DNA of 64,000 nucleotides from Parvibaculum sp. (lineage in GTDB: Bacteria > Pseudomonadota > Alphaproteobacteria > Parvibaculales > Parvibaculaceae), in NCBI RefSeq assembly GCF_030651915.1, contig NZ_JAUSBV010000005.1, positions 310,001 through 374,000 on the forward strand, read 5' to 3'. Below, piece after piece: positions 1 to 31,446 of this stretch. Both the position numbers and the translations under genes were made by a program. Under the pieces are notes generated by a model. It worked only from the letters and a program-made list of their open reading frames with translations, was not told the origin of the DNA and ran no database searches. Position 1 is the stretch's first letter, and each line of letters opens with the position of its first letter.

Positions 1-2
1 AT

Positions 3-5986: not shown

Positions 5987-5989
5987 TCT

Positions 5990-6325
5990 TCAGAGACCGA
6001 CAACTGTTTTCCATGACCGTTCGGTAAGGCAGACGGCGCTTACCTGTGACCGGCCATTGTCATCAGCCAGAATAACCCGACGACAGCGATCTCCCGTCGC
6101 GGAGACATAGTCGGCACCCACATGTACCAGCATGTTGTTGCCAGAAGGGGTGACGACAGGTCCGGTCGAGCCCGGCGCTGCGTTGACCGCATAAAGCGCA
6201 ATCGAATCGCCGGTCGGGTTACTGCCGGCAGCCGCATCCGCGGAGGCAAGTTCGCTGGACGTCGGCATGGTTTCACAGGCTGCCAACCCGACCGAGAGAA
6301 TCAAAGCAGCCAAAAATCCCCGCAT
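5990..6325 (-). CDS. Small putative outer-membrane lipoprotein
   Basis: A 111-residue protein starting MRGFLAAL, with a short hydrophobic signal and a lipobox (SVGLAAC) placing the lipidated cysteine at 17. The start is set by a GGTAAGG ribosome site just upstream; a longer reading frame exists but its extra N-terminus is low-complexity Arg/Ser sequence. The mature part has a small conserved-looking C-terminal half with cysteines at 81 and 99 (RCRRVILADDNG, SAVCL) that could form a disulfide. It is the last gene of the leftward capsule operon, 80 bases after the glycosyltransferase, and ends 3 bases from the stop of the convergent oxoamine synthase. I do not recognise the family; a role at the capsule export site is inference from position. 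Confidence 0.75.
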   Translation of the reverse strand: MRGFLAALILSVGLAACETMPTSSELASADAAAGSNPTGDSIALYAVNAAPGSTGPVVTPSGNNMLVHVGADYVSATGDRCRRVILADDNGRSQVSAVCLTERSWKTVVGL

Positions 6326-6405
6326 AGCCTTACCTTTTCCAACACCCGCCACAGCACTGCTATCAGCGGTGCTGCTGTTTGATCTTACCATAGAAAATTT
6401 TCTTG

Positions 6406-7482: not shown

Positions 7483-7490
7483 CGTCGCGA

Positions 7491-10483: not shown

Positions 10484-11139
10484 GGTGCGCACCTTCTCAT
10501 ATAAAAATCGATCGCATCTTCGATGTCGGCAAATGGCACCAGAACGCCGTCAAAGAGAACGAGGGCAATTTCGCAATACTCACGAATGGTGGCCTCACTA
10601 TGCGAAACCAGCAACATGCCCGCACCCTTCGATTGTTCGAGAAACACCTGGCGCGATTTGGCCCGGAAAAAGCGATCACCGGCGCCGATCGTTTCGTCGA
10701 TCAGGTAACAATCGAACTTGATAGCGAGACTGAGACCAAACGCCAAACGAGATTTCATGCCGCCGCTATAGGTCCGCACCGGCATATCGACATAGCTGCC
10801 GATTTCTGCAAAATCTTCGGTGAGGTCGAAGGTTTTCTCGTAGTCGACGCCATAAAGCCGCGCGACAAAAGAGATGTTTTCCCGTGCCGTCAGGTCGCCG
10901 TGAAAGCCGCCGGCATAGCCAAGAGGCCATGACAGGCGGGCGTTCTCGCGTACGATCATGCCCGACGACGGTTGATCCACACCCGCCACCATGTTGAGCA
11001 GAGTCGATTTTCCTGCACCATTCCGACCGAGCACACCGACACGCTTGTCGGTCGGAATCGAAAGTCGAGTTTCGCGCAGCACCTGGCGAACGCCGACATC
11101 GGTGTTGAAATGTTTTTCGACGTCGATCAGGTGAATCAT
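10480..11139 (-). CDS. kpsT: Capsule ABC transporter ATPase, KpsT/CtrD type
   Basis: A 219-residue ATP-binding subunit, the usual KpsT size. Walker A GRNGAGKS is at 38-45, the signature YSGGM at 124-128 and Walker B CYLIDE at 144-149, with a final switch histidine in VSHSEATI. It energises export of lipid-linked capsule across the inner membrane with the permease encoded just upstream. The ATG at 11139 overlaps the permease stop (ATGA); a longer frame reaches 11208 but would lie inside the permease gene and adds no conserved sequence. The family normally works as a KpsM2-KpsT2 complex. Confidence 0.94.
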   Translation of the reverse strand: MIHLIDVEKHFNTDVGVRQVLRETRLSIPTDKRVGVLGRNGAGKSTLLNMVAGVDQPSSGMIVRENARLSWPLGYAGGFHGDLTARENISFVARLYGVDYEKTFDLTEDFAEIGSYVDMPVRTYSGGMKSRLAFGLSLAIKFDCYLIDETIGAGDRFFRAKSRQVFLEQSKGAGMLLVSHSEATIREYCEIALVLFDGVLVPFADIEDAIDFYMRRCAP

Positions 11140-13013
11140 CGATCCAGAACCCGGCTTCGAAGTGCGCGATCCGCAAGCAACCCAAGCGCGAGGATGGCCA
11201 CAGCCCAACTGAATGCATAAACGATGTCCACGCGGGTGCCGCCCATCAGAGGATTGAAATTACCTCTCACGCCATCGACAAAATGCAAAAGGGGATTATA
11301 GGCCATGTACTGCGCGACCGACGCCGGCATCATGTCGAGCGTAAAGAAAACGCCCGAGGTGATGTAGAGCAGACGGTTCAGCCCATCCATGATGTTCTTT
11401 ATCGATTCGACAAACACAGCCAGAGATCCGAGCGCGAGCCCCGCTCCAATGCCGAATATCCAGAGGCCGAACAGATTGACCAGTACCGACAATGCACTAC
11501 CGAACGTGTATTTGTCCACGAACACATAGATGAAGGTGACGAACAGGATCAGAACGAAGATGTGCGTAAAGAGCTCAAGAATGCTCCTGGCAAAGAATAT
11601 ATCCATCGGCTGCACGCGCGAATGGTTCAAGAGCGGCCGGTTCTGCTTCAGCGCATTCGTCAACTGATTGTAGGTCTTGAGATAGACGAACAAAGGGACC
11701 ACGCCGGTCGTCACAAACAGGACCATATTCATGCCCAGAGAATCGCGGGCGCGGATGAAGTAGAAAATGAGGGAGATGACGAGCACGTGCATCATCGGCT
11801 CCAGGACTGCCCACAGATAGCCGAGTTCGTGTCGCCCGAACCTGGCCATCATCTCGCGGAGCATCAGGGTTCGCACCGAATGCGATAGCCGCTTGATGGC
11901 CGTTAACGGGTTTCCGCGCGCTGCCAGCGTTTCGGGCGTCCAGCGCGGCACAAATTCGGCCGGCATGTTCGACATGATCTTCTTGACTTCAGGATCCTGA
12001 AGAACGTCCTGTCTTTTCCCGCGCTTCTTTCTGGGTGTCCCGGGCGGCACCGCCTCCGGCATGTCGTCGGCGCCAGCATTGCGCAGCCGTGCAAGCAATT
12101 CGCGCCGCTCGTTCTCATACTCGGAGGCAGCGCCTATTTCCTTCAGAATTCGACGCGCTTCCTTGTCACGGCCGCCTTTGACAAGGCAACGAGACAGGAG
12201 GATCTTGCCCTCGACCCATGCATCATCAAGGGCGAGCTGCGCTTCAAGCCGCGTAATTGCCGGCGCGATACGACCTTCGCGGTAGGCACATCGAGCGGCG
12301 ATCCGCCCGAGCACTATATCATTCGGGTCAAGACGGATGCCGCCTTCGGCCGTCGCTCGTGCCTTTTGCCACTCGCCATCTTCGAAATACGCTTCCGCAA
12401 GGAGGCGTGTTCGCGCGGCCGTTGCCCCCAACATACGGTTGGCCTGCTCGGCCCACTGAATGACCAGATCTTTCCGGCCCTCTCGATGTGAAATGCGCAA
12501 CGCCGCCGCCACTTCGCGTTCGCTCACCTGATCGAATTTGAGATGCTCATCAAATAGCGCCAACGCAATGGCGGTCTGCCCGGCCATCGCCCGCAATCGG
12601 GCTTCGATCAACGCAATCCCATGTCTTTGGCCCGCAGGCGCTTCCCGGCGAGCAGCGTCGAGAATTTCAGCGGCCGGCTCAATTTCGCGACACAGAGCCA
12701 GAAAGACGCCGCGCAAATAGAGTGCGCGCCAGCCGCGATATCCCTGTTTCCAAACCTGTTCCGTCAGTTCGAGGCCGAGACGGTAACGCCGTCGCGCAAC
12801 CAGTTCGCCGCAGAGCCACCACAAACTCTCGAACGGCGGAATAAATGGTGTCTCGCCTTCAAGTGCCGTCACGGCAATCGCGATGGCAGCATCTTCCTCG
12901 CCAGCCGCATAGGCCCGCGAGAACTCTTCCGCCTGAACGGAACGCGACGATTGGTCGACAACGCTCAAACTCACCGGATAGATCCGCCTGTCTCTCGTGA
13001 GCATGGCCGGCAT
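11136..13013 (-). CDS. kpsM: Capsule ABC permease KpsM with a large N-terminal TPR-like extension
   Basis: A 625-residue fusion. Residues about 375-625 are an ABC-2 permease of the KpsM/CtrC type: the amphipathic LMLREMMARFGRHELGYLW, then about six membrane helices starting with MHVLVISLIFYFI. A normal KpsM is about 260 residues and is covered by this part alone. Residues about 25-300 are helical, Ala/Arg/Leu-rich and look like degenerate TPR or Sel1-type repeats (AYFEDGEWQKARATAEGGI, RCAYREGRIAPAITRLEAQL). A basic linker (PRKKRGKRQD) joins the two. The N-terminal part should be cytosolic, where it could dock glycosyltransferases or KpsS to the exporter; that is inference. The stop overlaps the kpsT start. 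The start is not certain: an ATG three codons later is equally good. Confidence 0.88.
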   Translation of the reverse strand: MPAMLTRDRRIYPVSLSVVDQSSRSVQAEEFSRAYAAGEEDAAIAIAVTALEGETPFIPPFESLWWLCGELVARRRYRLGLELTEQVWKQGYRGWRALYLRGVFLALCREIEPAAEILDAARREAPAGQRHGIALIEARLRAMAGQTAIALALFDEHLKFDQVSEREVAAALRISHREGRKDLVIQWAEQANRMLGATAARTRLLAEAYFEDGEWQKARATAEGGIRLDPNDIVLGRIAARCAYREGRIAPAITRLEAQLALDDAWVEGKILLSRCLVKGGRDKEARRILKEIGAASEYENERRELLARLRNAGADDMPEAVPPGTPRKKRGKRQDVLQDPEVKKIMSNMPAEFVPRWTPETLAARGNPLTAIKRLSHSVRTLMLREMMARFGRHELGYLWAVLEPMMHVLVISLIFYFIRARDSLGMNMVLFVTTGVVPLFVYLKTYNQLTNALKQNRPLLNHSRVQPMDIFFARSILELFTHIFVLILFVTFIYVFVDKYTFGSALSVLVNLFGLWIFGIGAGLALGSLAVFVESIKNIMDGLNRLLYITSGVFFTLDMMPASVAQYMAYNPLLHFVDGVRGNFNPLMGGTRVDIVYAFSWAVAILALGLLADRALRSRVLDR

Positions 13014-13106
13014 ACCGCCGGCTGCTCACACTTCCCATTGGCCATCAGCATACGATGCACCCTCGTCCCGGCGCGAATACGGCGGATCGGCCCGCGGCAA
13101 GCGCCG

Positions 13107-14447
13107 TCAAAGGCGGCCAGCCGTAACAATCGACTGCGGCGCGTTGTCCGGCGCCGGCACCTGATCGGCCACGACCACCCTGCTTCGATGGCCGTGTATC
13201 ACCACATCGGACGCCACGTTCGCGACTGTATCGACGCGATCCTGTCCGACCGCCTCGAATCTAGCGATCGCATTTGCGACGGCAAGCCGAATTCCCATCG
13301 GCGTGTAATAGTCGCCATTGATCATGCTCCGCGTCAAAAGCTGCCGCCGAAAATCCGCAAACAACCCCTTGTCGGGCGTCGTCGCCGATGACCAGAACTG
13401 GTCCAGTCCTCCCTGGAACGTCAGCCCCGGCCTGTCGAAAATGGCCGTGCCAAGGCAAATCAAGGGGCATCCAAGACCAAGCGCAGTCAGACCGACCGTG
13501 CTGTTCAACGTCACAACGCCCCGCGCGCTGCCGATCAGCGCCTGCAGGTCGCCCCCGTCGACGTAGTCAACCCTGTCCGATATGCCGTACCGACCAGCGA
13601 GCATGCGAACCCGCCGACGAAAATTGGTCCAACCATTGTCGAGTGGATGGGCCTTGACGACGAGCCGACACGGCGCAGGCATGTGAGACGCGAAGCTGCT
13701 TATTACATATTCCAGCGCCGACGTCATATCGGGGTGGGAAGAATGCAGCCGCACCTGCGAATCGCTGTCGAGCTGCATTGGAAAGACAAAATAGGGATCA
13801 CGTCCCTTTGCAAGACAATCGACCGTCCGCCTGGCTTGCCGACCGCGGAACGGCAGGGTGACCAGCCGACGCACCCATGTCGCATACTCCGCCCAAATCG
13901 GAAATGGGCGGTGCGTTCGGTATTTGGGATAGCGCAGCCATCCCAGATAATTCCATATCTGCCATTGGAAATCATAGATGACGCGGCGACGCATGGCCGA
14001 CTCGAGAGAGACGAAGCCCGGTTCGTCCGGCACGTCACCATCGCCATGACCGGAAAGCAAAGACGGATCGCGCAGCAATGGCGAATAACCGTTGATCCCG
14101 CCCTCTTCCAAAGTGAGCCAGTGCGGGCGAATATAACCCTCTTCGAACACCCAGGTACGGCACACCATCCCATCGATCGCATCTATGATTGCGCGATGAA
14201 GCGGACGGCAGTCATTGTGCATGATGATGTCGGAGACACCCTCCGCGACAATCAGGTCGCGTGCAAAAGCTGCAAAGTCGTCCGGCGCGCCGCGATAGTC
14301 GACGGCATTCCAGTCACCCCAGAAGAAACGGTCGCCGCCGCATAGGTTGATGCGCCTGACATGGTAACCGCGATCGACCAATGCATGTCCGAGCGCCAGA
14401 AAGAAATGGCTACTGTTTCCCTGAAGAAAGAGGAAGACACGGCTCAT
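13107..14447 (-). CDS. kpsS: Capsule polysaccharide biosynthesis protein, KpsS/LipB type
   Basis: A 446-residue member of the Capsule_synth family. The N-terminus shows the family pattern of an opening LFLQGNSSHFFLALGHAL, NDCRPLHRAIIDA and the hallmark FEEGYIRPHWLTLEEGG. Known KpsS and KpsC enzymes are Kdo transferases that build the poly-Kdo linker on phosphatidylglycerol, joining capsule to lipid. No separate KpsC is present in this window, so either this enzyme does the job alone or KpsC lies elsewhere. In rhizobia the cluster gene rkpJ belongs to this family. The start overlaps the preceding sulfatase-like gene by four bases, and 93 bases separate its stop from the permease start, the largest gap in this part of the operon. 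Confidence 0.88.
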   Translation of the reverse strand: MSRVFLFLQGNSSHFFLALGHALVDRGYHVRRINLCGGDRFFWGDWNAVDYRGAPDDFAAFARDLIVAEGVSDIIMHNDCRPLHRAIIDAIDGMVCRTWVFEEGYIRPHWLTLEEGGINGYSPLLRDPSLLSGHGDGDVPDEPGFVSLESAMRRRVIYDFQWQIWNYLGWLRYPKYRTHRPFPIWAEYATWVRRLVTLPFRGRQARRTVDCLAKGRDPYFVFPMQLDSDSQVRLHSSHPDMTSALEYVISSFASHMPAPCRLVVKAHPLDNGWTNFRRRVRMLAGRYGISDRVDYVDGGDLQALIGSARGVVTLNSTVGLTALGLGCPLICLGTAIFDRPGLTFQGGLDQFWSSATTPDKGLFADFRRQLLTRSMINGDYYTPMGIRLAVANAIARFEAVGQDRVDTVANVASDVVIHGHRSRVVVADQVPAPDNAPQSIVTAGRL

Positions 14448-16111
14448 CGAGACTCTCCCGCGCGCCTTTCATCTCTCCTGTCGTCGCTACCTTGCTCCGG
14501 CACATCGCGTTCATTCTTTGCCAAAGCTCTTGCATCGGCATCGGTCAACGCCACAGCTACGGTTTCGAGCAAGAGACGGTTCAGCGCATCGGCGCTGACA
14601 TTCACGGCGCGCGTGTCGCTCCGCGCCCTCTTGCGCCAGACAAAATAGTCGGTCCGGGGATCATCGTAACCGATCGTCCGGAACGCGTTGGGCAAGCTTG
14701 GCAGATGATCTCCGTAGAAACAAAAAACCGCGTCTCCTTTCATCTCCTGCAAAACTTTCCTTAGCCGTCCAATCATCTTGTCGGCGTTCTGGAGATGACT
14801 GAGATACTGCAAAACAGCTTTTGACCGGACGGGCGCCGCCGCACGAATTTCCTCCGGCACTTCAATGCGCGGTTTCGCCCATGGACCGTGATTTTCCATC
14901 GTTATCGCGAATACGAAGAGAGGCTGCGTTGTTTCCTTGAGAAGCGTTTCGATTTTCGTCGCTACGGCGGCATCCGACGTATAGGGCCCTATGCGGTCTG
15001 CCTCTTCAAACGCGGCTATGTCGATGAATTCGTCAAACCCGAGATGCGGATAAGCTTTATCACGCCGGAAGAAAGACTTGTGGAAGGGATGAATACAAAC
15101 AGTGCGGTATCCGATGCTCTGCAGGTAGGATGCAATCGTCCATACCGGTTTAGCGCAATAGCCGAGATATGGGTTGAAGCGATCGACACCCATCGCCTCG
15201 TCCGGAATGCCGGAAAGGAAAGCGAACTCGGTTCTGAGCGTATTTGCACCCCAGGCCGGGACGCGTAGCTGCCCACAGTATCGCGCCTCTGCAGCCATGC
15301 GGTCGAAGTGCTTCAGAAATCCGGTTGGTGCCTGCGCCATGATGCGGCGTGCATCGAAGAACGACTCGCTCTGCACCACGACCACAGAAGGTCGCGAATT
15401 GGATCGCCCGAAAGGCCGCGCGCGATCCTCGTCCTCATTCTTCTGCGAACGCGCGGTCGCCTCTTCGCTTTCACCGGCTATCAAGAAATAGAAGATCAGC
15501 GTCGTTACGAGGCTCAGCTTGTCAACGTCTTCCTTGACGTCGGTCGACGGCCCGAATTCCTTCAGAATTTGCCTGAATTCGTTTCTGAGCGGCCCTCGTG
15601 TGATGGCATAGATTGCGCCGAAGAAGACCAGACTATAGGCAAGTGTCGGCATCCATTCGGTGGCCTCGTCTCTCCTGAGAATCGGCGCCTCGAAGATCAA
15701 GCCCGCTGCGATCGCCAATGCGCCGGCGAAAATCACAGCCGCCACTTTCAATGGGCCGATATAGGTCACATACAGGCGCGGATGGGCGATCGCCTGACGC
15801 AGCAAGGCAAAATCGGAATAGACGAGCGGCTCGCGAAGTTCGCGGACCTTGGCGTTGTTGACGACGACAATGCCGAGAAAGACGATGATGACAAAAGCCG
15901 CCGAGAAAACCGGCCGGTAGGTCACCATGAGAATTGAAACATAAAACAGAATCAGCGGCATCGCCGCGAGCAGGCCGACCCTGTGCAGGATCGGCGTTCG
16001 ACGCCGCTGCGGTCTGACAAAACGCTCAAGGATCAACACTGCGGCAAGGGCCGTGAAAAGCCCGGCAAGACCGGCGATCATCGAACGTCCCCCGTGGAAG
16101 CCAAAAAACAC
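14444..16111 (-). CDS. Membrane-anchored LTA-synthase-like sulfatase/phosphotransferase
   Basis: A 555-residue alkaline-phosphatase-superfamily enzyme of the LtaS/OpgB branch. Residues 1-210 contain about five membrane helices, and the periplasmic catalytic domain runs from about 240. Metal and catalytic residues are recognisable: Glu249 in ESFFD, the presumed nucleophile Thr291 in GANTLRTEF, then MENHGPW and FCFYGDHLP for the distal metal site. The branch moves phosphoglycerol or phosphoethanolamine from phospholipids to glycans. In this operon it may decorate the capsule or its lipid. A similar membrane protein (rkpI) follows rkpH in rhizobial K-antigen clusters, as far as I recall. It starts directly after the SDR stop; an alternative start is Met11. 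Confidence 0.83.
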   Translation of the reverse strand: MFFGFHGGRSMIAGLAGLFTALAAVLILERFVRPQRRRTPILHRVGLLAAMPLILFYVSILMVTYRPVFSAAFVIIVFLGIVVVNNAKVRELREPLVYSDFALLRQAIAHPRLYVTYIGPLKVAAVIFAGALAIAAGLIFEAPILRRDEATEWMPTLAYSLVFFGAIYAITRGPLRNEFRQILKEFGPSTDVKEDVDKLSLVTTLIFYFLIAGESEEATARSQKNEDEDRARPFGRSNSRPSVVVVQSESFFDARRIMAQAPTGFLKHFDRMAAEARYCGQLRVPAWGANTLRTEFAFLSGIPDEAMGVDRFNPYLGYCAKPVWTIASYLQSIGYRTVCIHPFHKSFFRRDKAYPHLGFDEFIDIAAFEEADRIGPYTSDAAVATKIETLLKETTQPLFVFAITMENHGPWAKPRIEVPEEIRAAAPVRSKAVLQYLSHLQNADKMIGRLRKVLQEMKGDAVFCFYGDHLPSLPNAFRTIGYDDPRTDYFVWRKRARSDTRAVNVSADALNRLLLETVAVALTDADARALAKNERDVPEQGSDDRRDERRAGESR

Positions 16112-22880: not shown

Positions 22881-24320
22881 CTAAGTGCCTGTATCGCCTT
22901 GCAAAATATGAAGATAGGTGCGGACCTGCTGGACGAAATGCACCGCCTGCCCGCCCCGCGCCGGGCCGTGGCGGAGGCGGCCGGCATGGGCCGGATCGGC
23001 CAGCAGCGGCAGGGTGCGGCGCAGATCGGCCCAGCTGTTCTTGTCGCGGCCGAGGCTTTCGGCCAGGGCGCGGGCGTCGTAGACATGGCCGAGGCCGAGA
23101 TTCCAGGCTGCCAGCGCCATCCAGGTGCGGTCGGGCTCGGCCACTTCCACCGGCAATCTCTTTTTCAGATCAACGAGATAGCGCGCGCCGGCGGCGATGC
23201 TGGCGGTCGCGTCGCGGCGGTCTTCGAGGCCCAGATGCGTGGCCGTCTGCTGCGTCAGCATCATGAAGCCGCGCACGCCGGTGGGGCTGACGGCCTCCGG
23301 GTCCCAATGCGATTCCTGGTACGAAATCGCCGCAAGTAGTTGCCAGGAAAGGTTATTTTCGCGCGCGGCGCGGCGCAGCGCCTTTTCCCAGTTGGGCAGG
23401 CGGTCGCGCGTGGCGCGCTGGAAGGCGCTGAGATCGACATAGTCGAAACGCGGCAGGAAACCGAAAAAACGGCGCTCCAGCGCCGAAAATTGACCGGACT
23501 TGATGGCGCCGGCATGCCAGCGGCGGAGCTGTTCGGCGAGGTCTTCCGAACCCGGCGCCGCCAGCCATGCGACCGGAAAATCCCCTGTTAATTCAAAGGC
23601 TTGCATCAGCTCCGGGTAATAGGGATTGACGATGCGGAAGATGCGGGCATCGCTGAGCGCGCAGTCGAGGCTGCCGGCGGCGACGCGGGCCAGCAAAGCC
23701 TCTGTGTTTTCAGTGACATAGGTCTTTTCGAGGCCGGCGCCGGCCAGCAGCGCGGCGCCCGGCGTGCCCGCGGCGGCGGCAAAGCGCAGGCCGGCCAGAT
23801 CGTCGATTTTGCGTGGCCTTTCAACGAGTTGGCGGTTGCAGGCGACGATGAGGCGCGTCGTCGCATAGGTGGGGCCGCTGACGAAGGCCTTGCTGCGCGC
23901 CTCATCGACCGCCAGCCCTGCCGCCGCGACATGCCCCTTGCCGGCCGCCAGCGCCCGCACAAGCCTTTGTTCCGTCGGGTAAATCCGGAACTCGACCGCG
24001 ACGCCGAGCGAGCGGCCGAAGGCCCGCATCGCCTCATATTCAAAGCCGGTGAGGCCGTCGACGCCTTCATACCAGGTGGTGGGGCCGAGCCGGGTGAGCA
24101 CCACCAGCTTTCCATTTTCGCGAATGGATTCAAGGCCTTGATCGACAGGCGGCACATAGAGGCGGAGGAAAATCAGGTGGTTGGCGCCGAACAGCACCGT
24201 GAGCGCCAGCAGGAGCCAGGGAAAGCGCGAGCTGGCGCGCGCCGCCCAGGGGCCGGGCGTGCGCAGCCAGGCCAGCAGAGCAGCGGCCCAAGCCCTTGAT
24301 TTCGCAACGATTTCCGACAA
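22881..24320 (-). CDS. mltF: MltF-like membrane-bound lytic transglycosylase
   Basis: A 479-residue protein. It has one N-terminal membrane helix (WLLLALTVLFGANHLIFLRL, 35-54), a periplasmic solute-binding-protein-like domain (about 65-290, starting GKLVVLTRLGPTTWYEG), and an SLT lysozyme-like domain (about 305-430) whose catalytic Glu336 sits in AISYQESHWDP. This order is that of MltF, which cleaves peptidoglycan to 1,6-anhydro products at the envelope; the binding domain senses cell-wall peptides. The start is a TTG and is the first possible start in the frame. Pho-box-like repeats lie 71-144 bases upstream, suggesting phosphate-linked control. Confidence 0.88.
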   Translation of the reverse strand: MSEIVAKSRAWAAALLAWLRTPGPWAARASSRFPWLLLALTVLFGANHLIFLRLYVPPVDQGLESIRENGKLVVLTRLGPTTWYEGVDGLTGFEYEAMRAFGRSLGVAVEFRIYPTEQRLVRALAAGKGHVAAAGLAVDEARSKAFVSGPTYATTRLIVACNRQLVERPRKIDDLAGLRFAAAAGTPGAALLAGAGLEKTYVTENTEALLARVAAGSLDCALSDARIFRIVNPYYPELMQAFELTGDFPVAWLAAPGSEDLAEQLRRWHAGAIKSGQFSALERRFFGFLPRFDYVDLSAFQRATRDRLPNWEKALRRAARENNLSWQLLAAISYQESHWDPEAVSPTGVRGFMMLTQQTATHLGLEDRRDATASIAAGARYLVDLKKRLPVEVAEPDRTWMALAAWNLGLGHVYDARALAESLGRDKNSWADLRRTLPLLADPAHAGRLRHGPARGGQAVHFVQQVRTYLHILQGDTGT

Positions 24321-24390
24321 GCGCCGCGCCCCGGTTGCCTCTTCCGGGGGCAGAATAGCATGGGCGCGGGGGACGGCGCGGCGGCGATTG

Positions 24391-24464
24391 TGACAGTTGC
24401 GTGACAGCGGAAATCACGGCGGACCCCCCCTCTGTCACAAAACTGTCAAAAAACTGTCACAAAC
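24391..24464. promoter_or_regulatory. Pho-box-like array of 11-base repeats upstream of mltF
   Basis: Three CTGTCA repeats on the plus strand start at 24432, 24443 and 24454, spaced exactly 11 bases with A-rich fillers. Two more on the opposite strand (TGACAG at 24391 and 24402) are also 11 apart. Two 11-base direct repeats of CTGTCA plus four or five A/T-rich bases are the known PhoB-binding Pho box. The opposite-strand pair points to mltF, 71 bases from its start codon. The plus-strand triplet points to a region with no gene. Confidence 0.6.
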
Positions 24465-24510
24465 GGGGTTCGGGGTGTTCCGTGTACGGATGATCGGCGC
24501 GCGGACGGGC

Positions 24511-24532
24511 GGGGATAAACGGGGTTATCCCC
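24511..24532. repeat. GGGGATAA / TTATCCCC inverted repeat
   Basis: GGGGATAA (24511-24518) and TTATCCCC (24525-24532) pair around a six-base loop. The same octamer recurs next to the second Pho-box-like triplet near 51.1 kb, so the two elements may be one composite repeat. Confidence 0.5.
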
Positions 24533-24600
24533 GGGGGGTGCGGGCGGCGCGGGGGGATTCGGACGTGTGCGGATGAGGGCTCGGGAGTGGGCGGCGTTTG

Positions 24601-24696
24601 GGGACGAGATGAGGGACGAGATGGGGGACGAATTGAGAGACAAAACGGGAGGCGAGATGGGAGATTAAATGGGAGACGAGATGAGAGACGAATTCG
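24601..24696. repeat. Eight tandem 12-base repeats
   Basis: Eight consecutive 12-base units with consensus GRGACGAGATGR fill 24601-24696 just downstream of the ridA stop. Units differ at one to five positions. The rest of the 392-base spacer between mltF and ridA (24321-24712) holds the Pho-box-like array and the GGGGATAA palindrome; I see no gene there. Confidence 0.8.
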
Positions 24697-24712
24697 GCTC
24701 CGGTTTTGGGGG

Positions 24713-25105
24713 TCAGGCGGGAATGCGGGCGATCACCTTGATCTCGAAGTCGAAGCCCGCGAGCCAGTTGACGCCGACCGCCGTCCATGCGGGATAAGGC
24801 GGCGCGCTGAAGATTTCCTGCTTCACCGCCATCAGGGTGGCGAACTGGTTTTCGGGATCGGTGTGAAAGCTGGTCACGTCGATAATGTCGTCGAAGCCGC
24901 AGCCCGCCGCCTTGAGCGTCGCCTCGAGATTGGCGAAGGCCAGGCGGACCTGGCTTTCGTAACCCGGCTCGGGCGTGCCGTCGGGGCGGCTGCCCACCTG
25001 CCCGGAAACGAAGAGAAGATCGCCGGAGCGGATGGCCGCCGAATAGCCGTGCGCCTCGTAGAGCGCATGCCGGCCGTCCGGAAATACCGGGTCGCGTTTC
25101 GCCAT
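24713..25105 (-). CDS. RidA/YjgF/YER057c family protein
   Basis: A 130-residue RidA-superfamily protein. It shows the family segments LLFVSGQVGSRPDG, QVRLAFANLEATLKAAGCGF and PAWTAVGV, then FEIKVIARIP at the end. Canonical RidA deaminases carry an arginine in a CR(V)Q(V)-like segment; here the equivalent end is VNWLAGFDFEIKVIARIP, so imine deaminase activity is not assured and it may belong to an Rid2-7 subgroup. The start has an AAGGAA ribosome site. It is monocistronic, with the tandem 12-base repeats just after its stop. Confidence 0.87.
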   Translation of the reverse strand: MAKRDPVFPDGRHALYEAHGYSAAIRSGDLLFVSGQVGSRPDGTPEPGYESQVRLAFANLEATLKAAGCGFDDIIDVTSFHTDPENQFATLMAVKQEIFSAPPYPAWTAVGVNWLAGFDFEIKVIARIPA

Positions 25106-25308
25106 GGGGGATTCCTTTTTGCGGTGGCGGGGTATCGCGGCGGCGGCGGGCGCCGCCCGCTTCGCGGGCGCCTCGCCCCGGGGGGTTTGCAGGCATCCTC
25201 ATATCGGGAGGCGGTGGCGGGAGCGCAAGGTGCGATGGGGGATCACAAGGTGTTATGGGGGATCAGATGTGTGGCGTACGCGAAGCGCGGAGAAATGTTG
25301 ATTGCCAC

Positions 25309-26385
25309 TTACGAATACCGCACAACACCAGAAAGTGGGCTCGGTCCATCAAAGACGATGGCGACACTGTGACGCGCTCGGGTCACGCCCACATACATTT
25401 TCTCAACAGAGCCCTTTACGTAATCGTAGTTCCCTGACTTCAACCATTCTTTCCCCTTACCATGGGGAAAGATAAGCACTCGGCCAAAGGTCATCCCTTT
25501 GGATTCGCCAAAGTTCATCGCGTCGTAGCCACCACAAGGTGTCCTACGATCTAGACGCAAGACCTGAGGATTGTACTTCGCGATGTAGGTGGGTACGGAC
25601 TGAGTTGATACGAGGAACACCCCATCGTGCCCTGTGACACATTTATTCTTGGAGAGTGTCTTAGGCTCGGCAGGATAGAATGAATCCGCAAAATCTGCGA
25701 TCAACTGATGACAGCGATGCGTCTCCTGCTCGTAAGAGATTGTCACCAACCCATGCCTCTCCCAATCACGAAACTTGGAGACGATACCACCTCGCGAGAA
25801 AGAACTGTTTTTGGCGGCGTTGTTGGTTCTGTATGTTGCTTGTCGATGGTCACCGACCATCACTAGGTTGATCTTCGACCGTAAAATGAGCTCTAGCACC
25901 TCTAAATCGTAGCCCGCCATATCTTGAATTTCGTCGATAAAGATCGTGTGAAATCGATCCTCAAGCCGAGCGGCTACAGCGCCGCCTGTCTGCTCATTAC
26001 AATCGACGATGAAGCGGGCGATTTTATCAGAATAAATGTCATTCCCTTTTGATAGGAAGAAGGGGATGGCTTTGTCGCGCGCAACGCGAGGCGAACGCCC
26101 CTTGACCCAAGCAAGCCCATCAATACGACGATCTAGAATTGCACTCTGATATGGCCTCGCCATCTCATGCAGCAAGAAGCGATACCACGACCAAACTTCA
26201 GTATGCGCAGGTGGGGCGGCATGTATCTCATAGAGTTTATTTTTGATCTCCTGCACATTGGTCGTCGTGTAGGTAACGAGCGCCACCTTGCCGGCCTCAT
26301 GCGCATGTGCTCGAGCGGTCAAGCGTGTCGTCTTTCCCCCACCCGCAGCAGCGATGATAACCTCACTAGCCAATTGCTTCCTCAA
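25309..26385 (-). CDS. gajB: Compact UvrD/Rep-like helicase, Gabija GajB-like
   Basis: A 358-residue superfamily 1 helicase-like protein. All main motifs are visible: Walker A AAAGGGKTT (12-20), DEIQD (151-155), GDHRQATYR (178-186), ETHRCH (221-226), SKGMTFGRV (295-303) and VGVTRARHS (332-340). It lacks most of the extra subdomains of full UvrD and is clearly shorter than the characterised GajB (about 490 residues). Its start overlaps the GajA-like gene by 20 bases, so the two are translationally coupled. In Gabija, GajB senses nucleotide depletion or DNA ends and joins the GajA nuclease complex in anti-phage defence. The A/T-richer composition against the neighbours points to horizontal transfer. 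Confidence 0.82.
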   Translation of the reverse strand: MRKQLASEVIIAAAGGGKTTRLTARAHAHEAGKVALVTYTTTNVQEIKNKLYEIHAAPPAHTEVWSWYRFLLHEMARPYQSAILDRRIDGLAWVKGRSPRVARDKAIPFFLSKGNDIYSDKIARFIVDCNEQTGGAVAARLEDRFHTIFIDEIQDMAGYDLEVLELILRSKINLVMVGDHRQATYRTNNAAKNSSFSRGGIVSKFRDWERHGLVTISYEQETHRCHQLIADFADSFYPAEPKTLSKNKCVTGHDGVFLVSTQSVPTYIAKYNPQVLRLDRRTPCGGYDAMNFGESKGMTFGRVLIFPHGKGKEWLKSGNYDYVKGSVEKMYVGVTRARHSVAIVFDGPSPLSGVVRYS

Positions 26386-27958
26386 TATAGGCGGGGGCTG
26401 TCCAAGGCATTTCCGTCTTGAAGAACTTTAGCGCGACATCCGTCTTCCGATTTTCCATGTAGGCGAGAAGTTCGGCATCTGTTTGATACTGTGTTCCGAG
26501 TATGGCGTTGATCACCGAGATGCCGTTGGCCTTGAGAAGCTGAGGCTCAAGGGTTCTACAGCCCACATCATTGTCGTAGTGAATCTTGATACGCTCCTTT
26601 TCAAGATAACCTTTGTACTTTTCCCTAAGCGCATCGATATCGCCGTCGTTGTCTGTAACCACATCTGTCTTCAGATTTAGCAAGTTCGCGATTTCCAGAA
26701 AGCGCTTAAACGCCAGAGCGCGGACAGCGATGACATCAACACCGGCTTGCAGCGGCATCTTCCCGTGTCTTCTGTTGAAGGCGGCCTGAACTATCAATTC
26801 ATCGGAAGGGCCTTCTACTAATATCGTACGTTCCGCGAGGATCAGCCTTAGTGTGTCATGGCCGGGAAGTTTCAGGAAATAGTCCTTTGTCTCAGGAGTA
26901 AGTTGCTTGAGCGTCATACTCCCTGCTTTGCCGAATAGAAGCACACTTTCGATACCGAGCTTGTTGAGCACATAACTGCTGTGCGTCGTGATAAGAAGCT
27001 GGCGGTTCCCCCGATTTTTTGAGATATGCTCGATCAGCGCATTGAGGTTTGAATGAGATAGATGGTTTTCTGCTTCCTCGACCATAACCAAATGCGAGTC
27101 AGCAGATGTTTCAAGCGATAGCTTTACTTTGACGCTGCTCTGTTCCCCCTTGCCGACGAGCGTAATCGGTATATCGTCGAGTTGCGGCATGACACCTGTC
27201 TCCCAACTCGTCCTCGACGATGTATCGAGAGAAATGGTGAGCGATTTATTCGACACGCTCCCCCTTTTCTTAGCCAGTTCTGCGTTTATTGCCGCAACCT
27301 TCTTCTCATCAAGAAATCGGTCCCGCATGAGCCGATAGGAGAGTGCAAGATCGACCTGATCCTTGTTGCTCAAACTGCTTTTCACTATGTCCACCACATA
27401 ACGATTAGCAGCAACACCATTTCGGATTGTACTTGCATCGATCAGACTTGATTTGATTGGAATAGCCCGCGGCGTGGTGTCGTTATCCGTGAAGGCACGA
27501 AGCTTATAAGAATAGAATTCCACTGGAATGGTGCGGACTAAACTGGGATCCGCGATGTAAGACGCGTACGAATCCTTGTTCGCCTCGTCGAACTCGATGC
27601 TGAGCTTAACGCCTGGAACATCTTCTCTAAGCGAGTTGTTGATACCCTTGAACTTTGCAAGCTCTGGAACGTCGGCGAAATACAGTTCTATCAAGATGTC
27701 TGGCAGGGGAGGTTTCTTCCCAGCCCGAAGAGCACTTATGTATTGGAGCACCACTTCCTGATTGAAGAGGTATGGATGCAGCTCCACGATAAGCGGCCTA
27801 CCGTTCAGCTGACCGCTTAGCGCCAGATGTATGGCCTCCAAGAGAGTGGTTTTGCCGCATTCGTTGTTCCCTACGATCACGCTCAGCGTGTCATTGAGAA
27901 CCGTTGTCGAGTCACGCAGGCAACGATAATTCTTAACAACTACCTTTGTGATGTGCAC
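26366..27958 (-). CDS. gajA: OLD family ATP-dependent nuclease, Gabija GajA-like
   Basis: A 530-residue class 2 OLD nuclease. The ABC-type ATPase has Walker A VGNNECGKTT (29-38), a GKGEQSS signature-like loop, Walker B MVEEAENHL (292-300) and the switch TTHSS. The C-terminal TOPRIM nuclease has LVEGPSDE (380-387) and the acidic DNDGD (436-440), with a basic ENRKTD near the end. Size and layout match GajA (about 580 residues), which is a sequence-specific DNA nickase whose activity is held back by nucleotides. I chose the GTG at 27958, which has GGGAGGG about eight bases upstream; the open frame extends 30 codons further without an RBS. The adjacent helicase makes the pair Gabija-like. Confidence 0.87.
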   Translation of the reverse strand: MHITKVVVKNYRCLRDSTTVLNDTLSVIVGNNECGKTTLLEAIHLALSGQLNGRPLIVELHPYLFNQEVVLQYISALRAGKKPPLPDILIELYFADVPELAKFKGINNSLREDVPGVKLSIEFDEANKDSYASYIADPSLVRTIPVEFYSYKLRAFTDNDTTPRAIPIKSSLIDASTIRNGVAANRYVVDIVKSSLSNKDQVDLALSYRLMRDRFLDEKKVAAINAELAKKRGSVSNKSLTISLDTSSRTSWETGVMPQLDDIPITLVGKGEQSSVKVKLSLETSADSHLVMVEEAENHLSHSNLNALIEHISKNRGNRQLLITTHSSYVLNKLGIESVLLFGKAGSMTLKQLTPETKDYFLKLPGHDTLRLILAERTILVEGPSDELIVQAAFNRRHGKMPLQAGVDVIAVRALAFKRFLEIANLLNLKTDVVTDNDGDIDALREKYKGYLEKERIKIHYDNDVGCRTLEPQLLKANGISVINAILGTQYQTDAELLAYMENRKTDVALKFFKTEMPWTAPAYIEEAIG

Positions 27959-28029
27959 GGAATTTTCCCTCCCTAGACAACCGTTCGAGCAGCCTAATCT
28001 CACTCGTCCAATGCGTCCACGCATCCTAG

Positions 28030-28092
28030 AATACGGTGACAGGAGCAACGTTCCCTTCTGAGCATGGGAATCATTGCTCCTGTCACTGTATT
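28030..28092. repeat. Long imperfect hairpin between the two defence operons
   Basis: Arms at 28030-28055 and 28066-28092 pair over about 26 bases with two mismatches and one bulge, around a 10-base loop. It lies 72 bases upstream of the gajA-like start, in the spacer to ptuA. It could be a mobile palindromic element or be transcribed as a structured RNA. Confidence 0.75.
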
Positions 28093-28128
28093 CCTTGGCC
28101 TCTCCTCTCGCGGTGAGGTGGATTGGGT

Positions 28129-28147
28129 CCCGGGGACAAGCCCCGGG
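28129..28147. repeat. CCCGGGG / CCCCGGG palindrome
   Basis: A seven-base-pair stem with an ACAAG loop, a common intergenic palindrome of alphaproteobacteria. Together with the long hairpin and the repeat at 28207 it fills the 379-base spacer 27959-28337; I see no gene there. Confidence 0.6.
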
Positions 28148-28206
28148 ATGACACTTTTATTTTTGGCGGCTCGGAATTTTCGCGGGCGCGTTTGAAGAGT
28201 CCTTGC

Positions 28207-28246
28207 GAAGAGAGACGCCGCCAAAGGCGGCTTCTGGATTGCCGGG
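28207..28246 (+). repeat. Palindromic repeat, copy A (left of the Septu-like operon)
   Basis: The copy contains GAAGAGAGACGCCGCC, a three-base loop, then GGCGGCTTCTGGATTGCCGG. The same 36 bases recur in the same orientation at 30708-30747, on the other side of the ptuAB-like operon. Copy A stops short: the second palindrome that follows in copy B is missing. Confidence 0.8.
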
Positions 28247-28337
28247 CCAAATTGATAGCGACAACACGGCTTGAACGACATTTGAATGTAATCTCGAACG
28301 GGACCATAATATAAGGGCAATCTAGCGGGGGCGGGGC

Positions 28338-29855
28338 TTGCAGATACTAGTTTACAATCGGCGACGGACGGTGCCGCAACGCGCTGAACTCCGGCATCCT
28401 TACATCAGCCTCTTTCAGGACAACTGGGATGATTTCGGATGGAAGTGCCGCTTCGAAGCGACCCTGCATCTATCCGAAGACGAGGAGGTCGATCTCGGTC
28501 CGCTGAGAATCGCTGCAGACGATAACGCCTTCCGTGTTCACGACCTGCCAACTGTGCTCGACCAGCTTCCGGCACGAAGCGCTTCTCTCGGCGAATCCGT
28601 CGCCTACTATCGGAAAATTCGCGGCTTGCTCCCGAGGACGCGAAGGCTCTACCTGAATACCGTTCGCGATATCGTCGCGAGGCCTACTCGGCGCAAGCGC
28701 ATCCGAAACGAAAAGCTGTGGAACGACTGTTTTATGCGAGTGTCTTCCTCGCGTCACGCCCTTGATCGTGGTGGCTACTACATCGGAACACCGTTCGTCC
28801 AAGCTGAGCCTCCGAGCTTTCAGTTTAGGATGCGCCTACCCGGCGCAACTGGTGATCATCGATTCAACCTCGACTTTTCGAGCCACAACGACCTACCCAA
28901 CCGGACCATTCTCCTGGTCGGTCGAAACGGTACAGGAAAAACACGCGCCTTGGCGGGGCTGGCGGCCAGCGTAATGCCGCAAAAGGTCTTCAGCAGCGAA
29001 AGCGTGGATCGACTTCCCGATGCTGATGTGACTCCGCCCCTCACAATCAGCCGCTTGATCGCCGTCTCCTATAATGCGTTCGACGAATTTCCTTTACCTC
29101 GACGCGTGAGTCTAAAGTCACCTCGGATCGGTGGTGTCGCTTACAAGTCCCGCGGCTCCTATAAATACTGCGGGCTACGGGGTCAGGATGGCGCGCTCAC
29201 TACCAATGAGATAGGCCAAATGCTGAATGAGGCATTGGAACCTGTTATTCGGAGCGACCGCGTTGAGAGTCTCCAACGCGTCCTATCGACCCTGATAGAC
29301 CCGGAGCACGCCCAAGCTCTAACCGCCGATGACAAAGAAGATCGTGAAATGACCGCTCGCGCATTGAGCGCCGGGCAACGCTTGGTAGTTTCCATTTTTA
29401 GCAACATCATCGGATTTATTGAGGAAGGGTCCTTGTTACTGATCGACGAGCCCGAGACTAACCTCCACCCGGGTCTCCTGAGCACCTTTGTGGCAGCCCT
29501 CAACGAAACGCTCAAAGAGTTCGACTCCTATGCGGTCGTGGCCAGCCACTCGCCGATCCTGCTGCAGCAAGTTCCGAGCCGCTATGTTCGCCATTTCAAA
29601 CGCAACAACATGGACCATCCGCAGGTTCGCATACCTAATTACGAAACCTTCGGCGAAGACCTCGGGGAGTTAACCCGCCATGCGCTGGGGCTAGACGATC
29701 CGGAAATCGACTTCACCAACGTGCTTGATCGGCTCTTCAACCTGCATGGCAGCGCCAAGGCGGTTGCGGACCTCTTCGACCACCCACTGGGCATTCCGGC
29801 AACGGCCCACCTATATGGCTTGGAGAGCGATGCGCAGGAGCCCTCCGATCAATGA
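28338..29855 (+). CDS. ptuA: AAA/ABC-type ATPase, Septu PtuA-like
   Basis: A 505-residue ATPase of the SMC/OLD-like group without a TOPRIM domain. An N-terminal region of about 180 residues precedes Walker A VGRNGTGKT (194-202). The signature LSAGQ is at 343-347, Walker B LLLIDEPETNLHPG at 366-379 and the switch ASHSP at 402-406. The next gene, an HNH nuclease, overlaps by four bases (ATGA), which is the Septu arrangement of PtuA ATPase and PtuB nuclease. PtuA is thought to form a complex that gates PtuB until phage infection. The start codon is a TTG with a G-rich stretch (GGGGGCGGGG) upstream. A retron-borne PtuAB was considered, but no reverse transcriptase is present. Confidence 0.82.
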   Translation: MQILVYNRRRTVPQRAELRHPYISLFQDNWDDFGWKCRFEATLHLSEDEEVDLGPLRIAADDNAFRVHDLPTVLDQLPARSASLGESVAYYRKIRGLLPRTRRLYLNTVRDIVARPTRRKRIRNEKLWNDCFMRVSSSRHALDRGGYYIGTPFVQAEPPSFQFRMRLPGATGDHRFNLDFSSHNDLPNRTILLVGRNGTGKTRALAGLAASVMPQKVFSSESVDRLPDADVTPPLTISRLIAVSYNAFDEFPLPRRVSLKSPRIGGVAYKSRGSYKYCGLRGQDGALTTNEIGQMLNEALEPVIRSDRVESLQRVLSTLIDPEHAQALTADDKEDREMTARALSAGQRLVVSIFSNIIGFIEEGSLLLIDEPETNLHPGLLSTFVAALNETLKEFDSYAVVASHSPILLQQVPSRYVRHFKRNNMDHPQVRIPNYETFGEDLGELTRHALGLDDPEIDFTNVLDRLFNLHGSAKAVADLFDHPLGIPATAHLYGLESDAQEPSDQ

Positions 29856-30676
29856 GACGCCAAGGTCCCTACGACGCTCAACGCGTTCCAAGCTTTGCTG
29901 TGCTGGTCGAAGCATCCACTAAGGAGCGGGCGGATTTGATGAGGCCACTTGTCGGCCGAGTTGATCGCGCCGGCCGGCAATACGTTAGGAGCCTGCCCGA
30001 CGTTCACGGCATGCGTTCGACCGTTGCGGGCAAGGCTGACCGAAATGCCCTAGTTGATGGCTATGACGGACGCACCGTGGCGATCAAACGCTTGCTCTCG
30101 GCGATGGTGGACAGCTTGCCGGAGGAGAACGCCGACCTCTGTCCTTATTGCAGCCTCGATCAAAATCCGGACCTCGACCATTTCCTGCCAAAGGCCAAGT
30201 TTGCCGAGTTCTCGCTTTTCGCGCGAAACCTGATCCCAATCTGTACGCCCTGCAATCGCAAGAAGCTAAGCGCCGTGAAGACAGGAAATGGCGACCGGAT
30301 GTTCCTCAATCCGGCTTTTGAACCATCGATCGACCAGCCCATCCTGGAAGCGTCAATCAGTTATGCGGCTGAAAAGGTGTTTGTTACCTATGCGATCAAC
30401 AATGCTGGACCGTTGCCCGCCCCCGAACTAGCGGTTGCCAAACGACACTTTAAGCGGCTTGACCTCGCGGATCGCTACCGCAAACGAGCGCACGCCTTTC
30501 TGTCGGCGCTTAAGAATTCCACAAAGAAAATGTCGCCGGCGGTAAAGGCTGAGGCCCTTCGGAACAAAATTGAGGGCGCGCATTTGGGGTGTCCGGCAAA
30601 TAGCTGGGAACCGGCTTTGGCGCGAGCGATAGAAGAGGATCTGCCCGCCATGCTCGCTTGGCTGGCCGAACCCTGA
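29852..30676 (+). CDS. ptuB: HNH endonuclease, Septu PtuB-like
   Basis: A 274-residue protein with a zinc-supported HNH core: CPYC (97-100), DLDHFLPKAKF (107-117, catalytic His110), NLIPICTPCNRKK (126-138, Cys131 and Cys134). This is the pattern of PtuB and related defence nucleases. The C-terminal 120 residues are helical and basic and may bind PtuA or DNA. ATG overlaps the PtuA-like stop. In Septu, PtuB degrades nucleic acid on infection while bound to PtuA. It is somewhat longer than usual PtuB proteins. After its stop the sequence returns quickly to repeats and then GC-rich chromosome. Confidence 0.82.
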   Translation: MRRQGPYDAQRVPSFAVLVEASTKERADLMRPLVGRVDRAGRQYVRSLPDVHGMRSTVAGKADRNALVDGYDGRTVAIKRLLSAMVDSLPEENADLCPYCSLDQNPDLDHFLPKAKFAEFSLFARNLIPICTPCNRKKLSAVKTGNGDRMFLNPAFEPSIDQPILEASISYAAEKVFVTYAINNAGPLPAPELAVAKRHFKRLDLADRYRKRAHAFLSALKNSTKKMSPAVKAEALRNKIEGAHLGCPANSWEPALARAIEEDLPAMLAWLAEP

Positions 30677-30707
30677 ACTAGCTTCGGCAACGAGAATGAG
30701 TCGTTGT

Positions 30708-30762
30708 GAAGAGAGACGCCGCCTTGCGGCGGCTTCTGGATTGCCGGATCAAGTCCGGCAAT
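30708..30762 (+). repeat. Palindromic repeat, copy B (right of the Septu-like operon)
   Basis: Copy B repeats the 36 shared bases of copy A (28207) and continues into a second palindrome, ATTGCCGGA-TCAAG-TCCGGCAAT (30740-30762). Both stems are typical of alphaproteobacterial REP-like elements. Confidence 0.8.
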
Positions 30763-30887
30763 GACGATGTTGGGGGTGCTTGCGGGCCGAAGGCGGGCGC
30801 GCGTTTTTCCCTGTACGGATCGTTTTTCCGGCCCTTCGCTTGCGCTGCGGGCGTTCGAACTCGAAAACGTCCCTCGCCCCCCGCCCC

Positions 30888-30906
30888 AAATTCGCTGCGC
30901 GAATTT
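30888..30906. repeat. AAATTCGC / GCGAATTT palindrome
   Basis: An eight-base-pair stem with a TGC loop inside the 305-base spacer 30677-30981, followed by a CCCTCCCC/GGGGAGGG stem. The spacer holds only such palindromes and the Rrf2 operator; I see no gene. Confidence 0.6.
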
Positions 30907-30964
30907 GACCCTCCCCGAGGGGAGGGTGGGAAAGAACGGCGAGGCTTGACTCCCGCCGCGACTC

Positions 30965-30981
30965 GTAACATATGTTGTTAC
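30965..30981. promoter_or_regulatory. Operator-like inverted repeat touching the rrf2 start codon
   Basis: GTAACA-TATGT-TGTTAC is a perfect six-base inverted repeat with a five-base spacer. It ends on the base before the ATG of the Rrf2-like gene. It also overlaps the place where a ribosome site would be expected, so the mRNA may be nearly leaderless and autorepressed. Confidence 0.6.
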
Positions 30982-31446
30982 ATGAAACGGAACAGCCAGC
31001 TTTCAGGTGTGCTGCATGTGCTGCTGCACATGGCCGGCGAGGACCGCCCGGTGACCTCCGAACGGCTGGCGCAGGCGATGATGACCCATCCGGTGGTGAT
31101 CCGGCGGATCATGGCGGGCTTGCGCGAGGCGGGCTATGTGCGCTCCGAAAAGGGGCATGGCGGCGGCTGGCGGCTGACCTGCGACCTCAAGCGCGTGACG
31201 CTGCGCGATGTCTATGACGCGCTGGGGCGCCCTTCCCTGCTGGCGATGGGGAACCGGACGGAGGCGCCGGGCTGCCTGGTCGAGCAGGCGGTCAACGCGG
31301 CGCTGGCGCCGGCCTTTCGCGACGCCGAGACGCTGCTGCTCGAGCGGCTCGGCGAAGTGACGCTGGCGGCGCTCAGCGCGGATTTCCACAAACGCTTCGC
31401 CGCGCGCGGCGGCGCCCACAGTCTGGAGAAGGCCCATGCGTCCTGA
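30982..31446 (+). CDS. Rrf2 family transcriptional regulator
   Basis: A 154-residue Rrf2-type winged-helix regulator. The N-terminal helix-turn-helix (SERLAQAMMTHPVVIRRIMA) and the wing KGHGGGWRLTCDL fit the family well. Fe-S members such as IscR and NsrR use three cysteines in the C-terminal half; here I count one after the wing (APGCLVEQ), so it probably senses something without a cluster, like YwnA/CymR-type members. The start is fixed by the operator-like repeat that ends one base before the ATG. Its last codons overlap the start of a truncated methyltransferase gene, the partner often found beside this regulator. Confidence 0.88.
   Translation: MKRNSQLSGVLHVLLHMAGEDRPVTSERLAQAMMTHPVVIRRIMAGLREAGYVRSEKGHGGGWRLTCDLKRVTLRDVYDALGRPSLLAMGNRTEAPGCLVEQAVNAALAPAFRDAETLLLERLGEVTLAALSADFHKRFAARGGAHSLEKAHAS

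What the first reader, a model, noticed from the sequence alone, without database searches (positions are those of the whole stretch)
25309..30676. Two back-to-back defence pairs: Gabija-like and Septu-like
A GajA/GajB-like pair reads left and a PtuA/PtuB-like pair reads right from a shared 379-base spacer. Both pairs have overlapping genes, and the block is more A/T-rich than the DNA around it. Gabija and Septu are known anti-phage systems. Their tight divergent pairing could let the two share control or act as one unit. Novelty of the pairing itself is inference.
Basis: partly seen in the sequence, partly recalled or inferred. Interest (0 to 1): 0.72.

Follow-up and report, generated by a model that had tools for sequence, protein, structure and literature searches.

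The report
Two unrelated neighbouring anti-phage gene pairs
A bacterial chromosome carries two known kinds of predicted virus-defence gene pair side by side in one insertion hotspot; each pair is real and widespread, but their back-to-back arrangement was found nowhere else and looks like ordinary accumulation of defence genes, not a new joint system.

Summary
The four genes, their overlaps, the 379-base spacer and the A/T-rich block are all there. Left pair: a Gabija pair (PADLOC GajA E=8e-221, GajB E=7e-126). Its GajB is a compact form, 358 aa, that lacks the stretch holding the C-terminal accessory (2B-like) subdomain of Bacillus GajB. Right pair: an ABC ATPase plus HNH nuclease. Its best profile match is PADLOC candidate PDC-M01 (E=2e-103 / 5e-41); the PtuA profile comes second (4.5e-60), and the modelled HNH protein aligns with solved PtuB chains at Z 8-10. 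So 'Septu-like' is right as a kind, but it is not a confirmed Septu. The shared-unit idea fails. None of 80 related GajA loci (most with 10 kb flanks) has the M01 pair, and none of 52 M01 loci in viral contigs has Gabija. Two Rhizobiaceae plasmids carry both within a larger defence island, on the same strand and about 7 kb apart. The spacer is largely dispersed repeats, the two pairs differ in third-position GC, and the interval between the flanking genes is nearly empty in a sister genome: a defence hotspot. By-product: the M01 pair is homologous to phage lambda-type Ea59-Ea31, a link not found in the held literature.

The parts
25309..26385 (-). gajB, compact UvrD-like SF1 helicase (358 aa; start TTG 26385, or more likely TTG 26373)
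   Evidence: PADLOC GajB PDLC00148 E=7.1e-126, profile of 369 positions; Pfam UvrD-helicase; model pLDDT 95.5, Z about 25 to UvrD/PcrA/Rep and 18 to GajB 8sm3; the region of BcGajB 249-413 is reduced to about 35 residues
26366..27958 (-). gajA, OLD-type ABC ATPase + TOPRIM nuclease (530 aa, GTG start, GGGAGG-type ribosome site upstream)
   Evidence: PADLOC GajA PDLC00102 E=8.4e-221; OLD-like_TOPRIM PF20469; invariant Walker A G35-K36, E294-E295, H326, TOPRIM E382 and D436/D438 across 53 relatives
27959..28337 (.). 379-bp spacer, largely dispersed repeats; one weak promoter-like match, facing the right pair only
28029..28093 (.). 65-nt palindromic dispersed element (27-nt arms, 85% complementary)
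   Evidence: four other places in this genome at 88-92% identity
28197..28250 (.). dispersed repeat; near-identical copy at 30698-30752 on the other side of the right pair, same orientation
   Evidence: 92% between the two copies in two blocks; further copies on other contigs
28338..29855 (+). PDC-M01A / PtuA-like / lambda Ea59-like ABC ATPase (505 aa, TTG start aligned with the ATG of the Bradyrhizobium relative)
   Evidence: PADLOC PDC-M01A E=1.8e-103, PtuA1 E=4.5e-60; 61.5% identity to Bradyrhizobium sp. 62B; Walker A, signature, Walker B and H-loop residues invariant in 11 relatives
29852..30676 (+). PDC-M01B / PtuB-like / lambda Ea31-like HNH nuclease (274 aa)
   Evidence: PADLOC PDC-M01B E=5.3e-41; C97, C100, D109-H110, N126, C131 and C134 invariant in 40 sequences, N135 nearly so; model pLDDT 88; PtuB chains Z 8.1-10.0
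30698..30752 (.). second copy of the dispersed repeat, flanking the right pair
24320..30992 (.). insertion hotspot between a lytic-transglycosylase-like gene (22881-24320) and an Rrf2-like regulator gene (about 30993-31446)
   Evidence: the interval is about 0.5 kb in genus relative G396, about 3.5 kb with other genes in G386 and about 4.1 kb with other genes in G388

Best explanation
Two separate two-gene anti-phage modules sit next to each other by accretion in a chromosomal insertion hotspot. The left module is a compact-GajB Gabija: GajA (ATPase gate plus TOPRIM nuclease) with a helicase-like partner probably attacks invading DNA with exposed or unprotected ends. The right module is a PDC-M01 pair of the Septu/PtuAB kind: an ABC ATPase that most likely senses infection and holds or releases an HNH nuclease, whose substrate is unknown here (host tRNA in the one Septu tested to that level, PMC13096335). 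Each works on its own; the divergent layout has no special meaning. Shown here: homology, pairing within each module, motifs, fold of GajB and M01B, lack of conserved pairing, spacer content, hotspot. Inferred: anti-phage activity, sensing and substrates.
For: Profiles. Fixed within-pair synteny: GajA-GajB 79/80, M01A-M01B 10/10 and 50/52. Cross-pair adjacency: 0/80 GajA loci, of which 67 have at least 2.5 kb and 59 at least 8 kb upstream, and 0/52 M01 loci in viral contigs. In two Rhizobiaceae plasmids both modules lie in one island, same strand, about 7.3 kb apart, with Z1-domain, restriction-modification and other genes. The 66 GajA loci with a large upstream neighbour have it on either strand 33:33. 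Neither module is in the other 26 genus genomes. Hotspot in relatives. Spacer largely repeats. GC3 0.56-0.57 vs 0.64. Fold of M01B = PtuB. Literature: Gabija targets DNA without RecBCD (PMC12407980); Septu needs PtuA Walker and PtuB H-N-H residues and cuts tRNA-Tyr (PMC13096335); defence systems cluster non-randomly in islands (PMC10121019, abstract).
Against: Co-residence in two Rhizobiaceae plasmid islands could hint at a mild preference for company, though those two hits were picked because they matched both queries. Both modules are foreign in composition and could have arrived together. No anti-phage activity is shown for either.
Confidence: 0.86

Rival explanations
1. The two pairs form one regulated or cooperating unit: the 379-base spacer is a bidirectional control region and the two nuclease systems act in sequence or back each other up.
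For: Tight divergent layout; co-residence in two plasmid defence islands; one promoter-like match in the spacer.
Against: 0/80 and 0/52 conservation of the pairing; the spacer is built largely from repeats present elsewhere in the genome; no promoter-like match toward gajA; on the plasmids the two are neither divergent nor adjacent.
Confidence: 0.04
2. The two pairs arrived in one transfer event as a ready-made block, without functional coupling.
For: Both lie in a single interval that is nearly empty in a sister genome; close relatives of both are found in Rhizobiales.
Against: Different GC3; no donor block with this layout found; the right pair alone is bracketed by direct copies of a dispersed repeat.
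Confidence: 0.25
3. The right pair is a nuclease module of prophage or plasmid origin with a role in phage biology (as lambda Ea59-Ea31 might have), not bacterial defence.
For: Homologues in lambdoid phages next to int/attP and in 52 viral contigs; lambda ea59 and ea31 are non-essential for lytic growth (PMC10695390).
Against: Two plasmid members sit in defence islands; PtuB fold; prophages often carry defence genes against rival phages, so the two readings are compatible.
Confidence: 0.12

Closest known systems
Gabija (GajA-GajB, Bacillus cereus VD045; PDB 8sm3, 8jqb)
   Same: OLD-type ATPase-TOPRIM nuclease followed by a UvrD-like helicase in overlapping genes; TOPRIM glutamate and DxD motif and the ATPase histidine kept; PADLOC GajA/GajB profiles
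   Different: GajB is 358 aa instead of 494 and the stretch corresponding to BcGajB 249-413, which includes the Cacc (2B-like) subdomain 314-416 named in PMC10681800, is reduced to about 35 residues; sequence similarity of GajA to solved GajA is weak (about 44-49 bits)
Septu (PtuA-PtuB) and retron Ec78/Eco7 PtuAB
   Same: ABC ATPase gene overlapping an HNH nuclease gene; PtuA1 profile E=4.5e-60; M01B model aligns with PtuB chains over 183-194 residues at Z 8.1-10.0, the next row being 5.7
   Different: Better match to PDC-M01 profiles; far below NCBIfam cut-offs for Ec78 PtuA (38.5 of 500 bits) and PtuB (17.3 of 150); no reverse transcriptase gene evident next to it
PADLOC candidate PDC-M01
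   Same: Best match of both right-hand proteins; same two-gene order
   Different: No difference found; a candidate in PADLOC, described as unpublished and treated as duplicating Septu in 41 cases in PMC11811056
Phage lambda-type Ea59-Ea31 (HK630)
   Same: Homologous pair in the same order with overlapping genes; M01A-family model 506 bits, M01B-family model 193 bits; PADLOC PDC-M01A E=8e-202, PtuA1 E=8.8e-185, PDC-M01B E=5.8e-113 for the HK630 proteins
   Different: About 27% identity to the window ATPase; lies next to attP of a temperate phage

Membership tests
Gabija | GajA: OLD-type ATPase plus TOPRIM nuclease | tested here: met
   PADLOC PDLC00102 E=8.4e-221, AAA_15 and OLD-like_TOPRIM above cut-off; catalytic residues invariant
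Gabija | GajB: UvrD-like SF1 helicase encoded next to gajA | tested here: met
   PADLOC PDLC00148 E=7.1e-126; UvrD fold Z about 25; 79/80 synteny
Gabija | Four-subdomain GajB as in the solved B. cereus protein | tested here: not met
   Residues matching BcGajB 249-413 are reduced to about 35; PADLOC's own GajB profiles include this short form, so this marks a sub-form
Gabija | 4:4 GajA-GajB complex with anti-phage activity | not testable with these tools
   needs experiment
Septu (PtuAB) | ABC ATPase PtuA followed by HNH nuclease PtuB | tested here: met
   Motifs, gene order and PtuA1 profile
Septu (PtuAB) | PtuB fold | tested here: met
   Nine PtuB chains at Z 8.1-10.0, then a drop to 5.7; Foldseek E 2e-3 to 0.4
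Septu (PtuAB) | Curated PtuA/PtuB (retron Ec78) profile cut-offs | tested here: not met
   38.5 of 500 and 17.3 of 150 bits
Septu (PtuAB) | PtuA-PtuB oligomer and nuclease activity on infection | not testable with these tools
   needs experiment
PDC-M01 | PDC-M01A plus PDC-M01B encoded together | tested here: met
   Best profile hits of both proteins; M01A-M01B adjacency in 10/10 and 50/52 relatives
Joint Gabija/M01 unit | Conserved divergent pairing | tested here: not met
   0/80 and 0/52

The most novel reading that the evidence does not exclude
The PDC-M01 pair is a PtuAB-type ATPase-HNH immune module whose best-known members are Ea59-Ea31 of lambdoid phages, so lambda itself would carry a Septu-like system that guards its lysogens against rival phages.
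Probability: 0.45. Interest if true: 0.55.

Novelty: new member of a known kind. Interest (0 to 1): 0.3.

Why it matters
It shows that a striking divergent pairing of two defence modules can be plain accretion in a hotspot, and gives clear numbers for it. It also documents a widespread compact GajB without the accessory-subdomain region of the Bacillus protein, so that region is absent from many natural Gabija pairs, and links a candidate defence pair to long-known lambda genes of unknown role, which can be tested in standard E. coli strains.

Tried and rejected
(2) A single-sequence scan of viral contigs for M01A found no relative; the profile scan found 64 loci. (3) The weak M01A-profile hits in the 80 GajA loci are nearly all GajA itself (shared ABC fold), the rest weak AAA matches at about 22 bits or less. 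(4) A transposase between paired copies of the 65-nt palindrome was considered; nothing obvious in the ORFs of two such places, no family scan made. (5) Shared promoter: one weak match, facing the right pair only. (6) Filing the right pair simply as Septu: rejected as too strong because curated PtuA/PtuB cut-offs are missed. (7) Papers that hold both ea59 and ea31 were not titled as defence papers, and no paper joined the names with Septu, HNH and anti-phage terms; only PMC10695390 was opened, and it lists them as non-essential. Absence from this library is not proof that the link is unpublished.

Full report
What is there. Four ORFs lie at the stated places with the stated overlaps and a 379-base spacer. 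The block is poorer in GC than its immediate flanks, above all at third codon positions: 0.56-0.57 for the left pair, 0.64 for the right pair, 0.79-0.92 for the flanking genes measured.

Left pair. PADLOC names the proteins GajA (E=8.4e-221) and GajB (E=7.1e-126). GajA has the OLD ATPase and TOPRIM domains, and the Walker A lysine, the ATPase histidine, the TOPRIM glutamate E382 and the D436-x-D438 motif are invariant in 53 relatives. In 79 of 80 related loci from a GTDB genome collection a short GajB gene follows, nearly always overlapping. In one (L106) it lies about 3 kb further on, and the locus without it (L097) ends inside gajA. GajB is compact: its model (pLDDT 95.5) has the UvrD fold (Z about 25 to UvrD/PcrA/Rep, 18 to GajB of 8sm3), and the profile alignment jumps from residue 248 to 414 of the B. 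cereus protein while the compact form spends only about 35 residues there. That gap contains the Cacc (2B-like) subdomain 314-416 described in PMC10681800. PADLOC already holds profiles of this short length, so it is a known sub-form, not a discovery.

Right pair. The best profiles are the PADLOC candidates PDC-M01A (1.8e-103) and PDC-M01B (5.3e-41), with PtuA1 next for the ATPase after two PDC-M01A models (4.5e-60). PMC11811056 treats PDC-M01 as duplicating Septu in 41 cases. Curated PtuA and PtuB (retron Ec78) cut-offs are missed by far. The ATPase has the full ABC motif set in 11 relatives. The nuclease has the zinc-HNH pattern C97, C100, D109-H110, N126, C131, C134 invariant in 40 sequences. 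Its predicted structure (pLDDT 88) aligns to nine solved PtuB chains at Z 8.1-10.0 over 183-194 residues; the next row falls to 5.7, while Foldseek alone gives PtuB chains at E 2e-3 to 0.4. So it works like PtuAB and is best filed as PDC-M01. The pair is the same two-gene module in ten plasmid and genome loci and in 50 of 52 viral-contig loci, the two others being cut by the contig end.

The pairing. None of the 80 GajA loci holds an M01 pair; 67 of them have at least 2.5 kb and 59 at least 8 kb upstream. None of the 52 M01 loci in viral contigs holds Gabija. No other genome of the genus (26 searched) has either module. In a sample of 385 genomes of the class only four have this GajA form with strong scores and only the window's genome has M01A at E<=1e-40; at phylum level 5 of 398 have M01A at E<=1e-60. 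Two Rhizobiaceae plasmids carry both modules in one island, on the same strand and about 7.3 kb apart, with Z1-domain, restriction-modification and other genes. Among 66 GajA loci with a large upstream neighbour, that neighbour is on the same or the opposite strand 33 times each, so divergence in itself is what chance gives.

The place. In genus relatives the genes on either side are kept but the interval between them varies: about 0.5 kb in G396, about 3.5 kb with other genes (one reading like a TIR domain) in G386, about 4.1 kb with other genes in G388. The window's insert is therefore one filling of a hotspot. The spacer is largely dispersed repeats: a 65-nt palindrome with four other places in this genome, a 34-nt element, and an element of about 50 nt that also lies directly downstream of the right pair. 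Only one weak promoter-like match was found, facing the right pair. This does not look like a control region kept for joint use.

Mechanism. For Gabija I adopt the published picture: GajA cuts DNA and is gated by nucleotides (PMC8136825), and Gabija targets linear DNA not guarded by RecBCD (PMC12407980). For the M01 pair I infer a PtuAB-like mechanism: ATPase sensing, HNH nuclease release; in the Septu studied in PMC13096335 the result is cleavage of host tRNA-Tyr. Whether M01 cuts tRNA or DNA cannot be told from sequence.

By-product. A search of phage records found that M01A is a relative of Ea59 of lambdoid phages (about 27% identity, E=8e-35). In HK630 the gene next to it, annotated HNH endonuclease and in the position of lambda ea31, matches the M01B family model with 193 bits, and PADLOC profiles score the phage pair at E=8e-202 (PDC-M01A), 8.8e-185 (PtuA1) and 5.8e-113 (PDC-M01B). 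PMC10695390 lists ea59 and ea31 as non-essential in lambda. I found no held paper that ties them to Septu. This makes a simple, standard lambda test possible.

Verdict. Real, correctly read genes; ordinary in kind; the claimed unit is not supported.

Noticed in passing
L223 (phage HK630 NC_019723.1, record 24321-26785): Lambda-type Ea59-Ea31 is homologous to the PDC-M01 / PtuAB-like pair; no held paper was found that makes the link.
   Followed up: partly
24320-30992: Variable insertion hotspot between a lytic-transglycosylase-like gene and an Rrf2-like regulator gene; genus relatives carry other cargo there, one ORF (L153 9601-10359) reading like a TIR domain protein.
   Followed up: partly
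28029-28093: 65-nt palindromic dispersed element; the other places in the genome lie in two pairs about 600-800 bp apart (G000 C5:500001/500788 and C8:648010/648604).
   Followed up: partly
1-16111: Type I polyketide synthase piece and a class I/II aminotransferase next to a capsule export and synthesis set (Poly_export, ABC transporter, Capsule_synth) and a sulfatase.
   Followed up: no
L146 and L147 (NZ_CP109970.1, NZ_CP104037.1): Near-syntenic Rhizobiaceae plasmid defence islands with compact Gabija, a Z1-domain gene set, an M01 pair, a helicase/EcoRII-N/ATPase/HNH set and a restriction-modification system.
   Followed up: partly
24600-24691: Imperfect 12-base tandem repeats (GGGGACGAGATG units) between the lytic-transglycosylase-like and RidA-like genes.
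   Followed up: no
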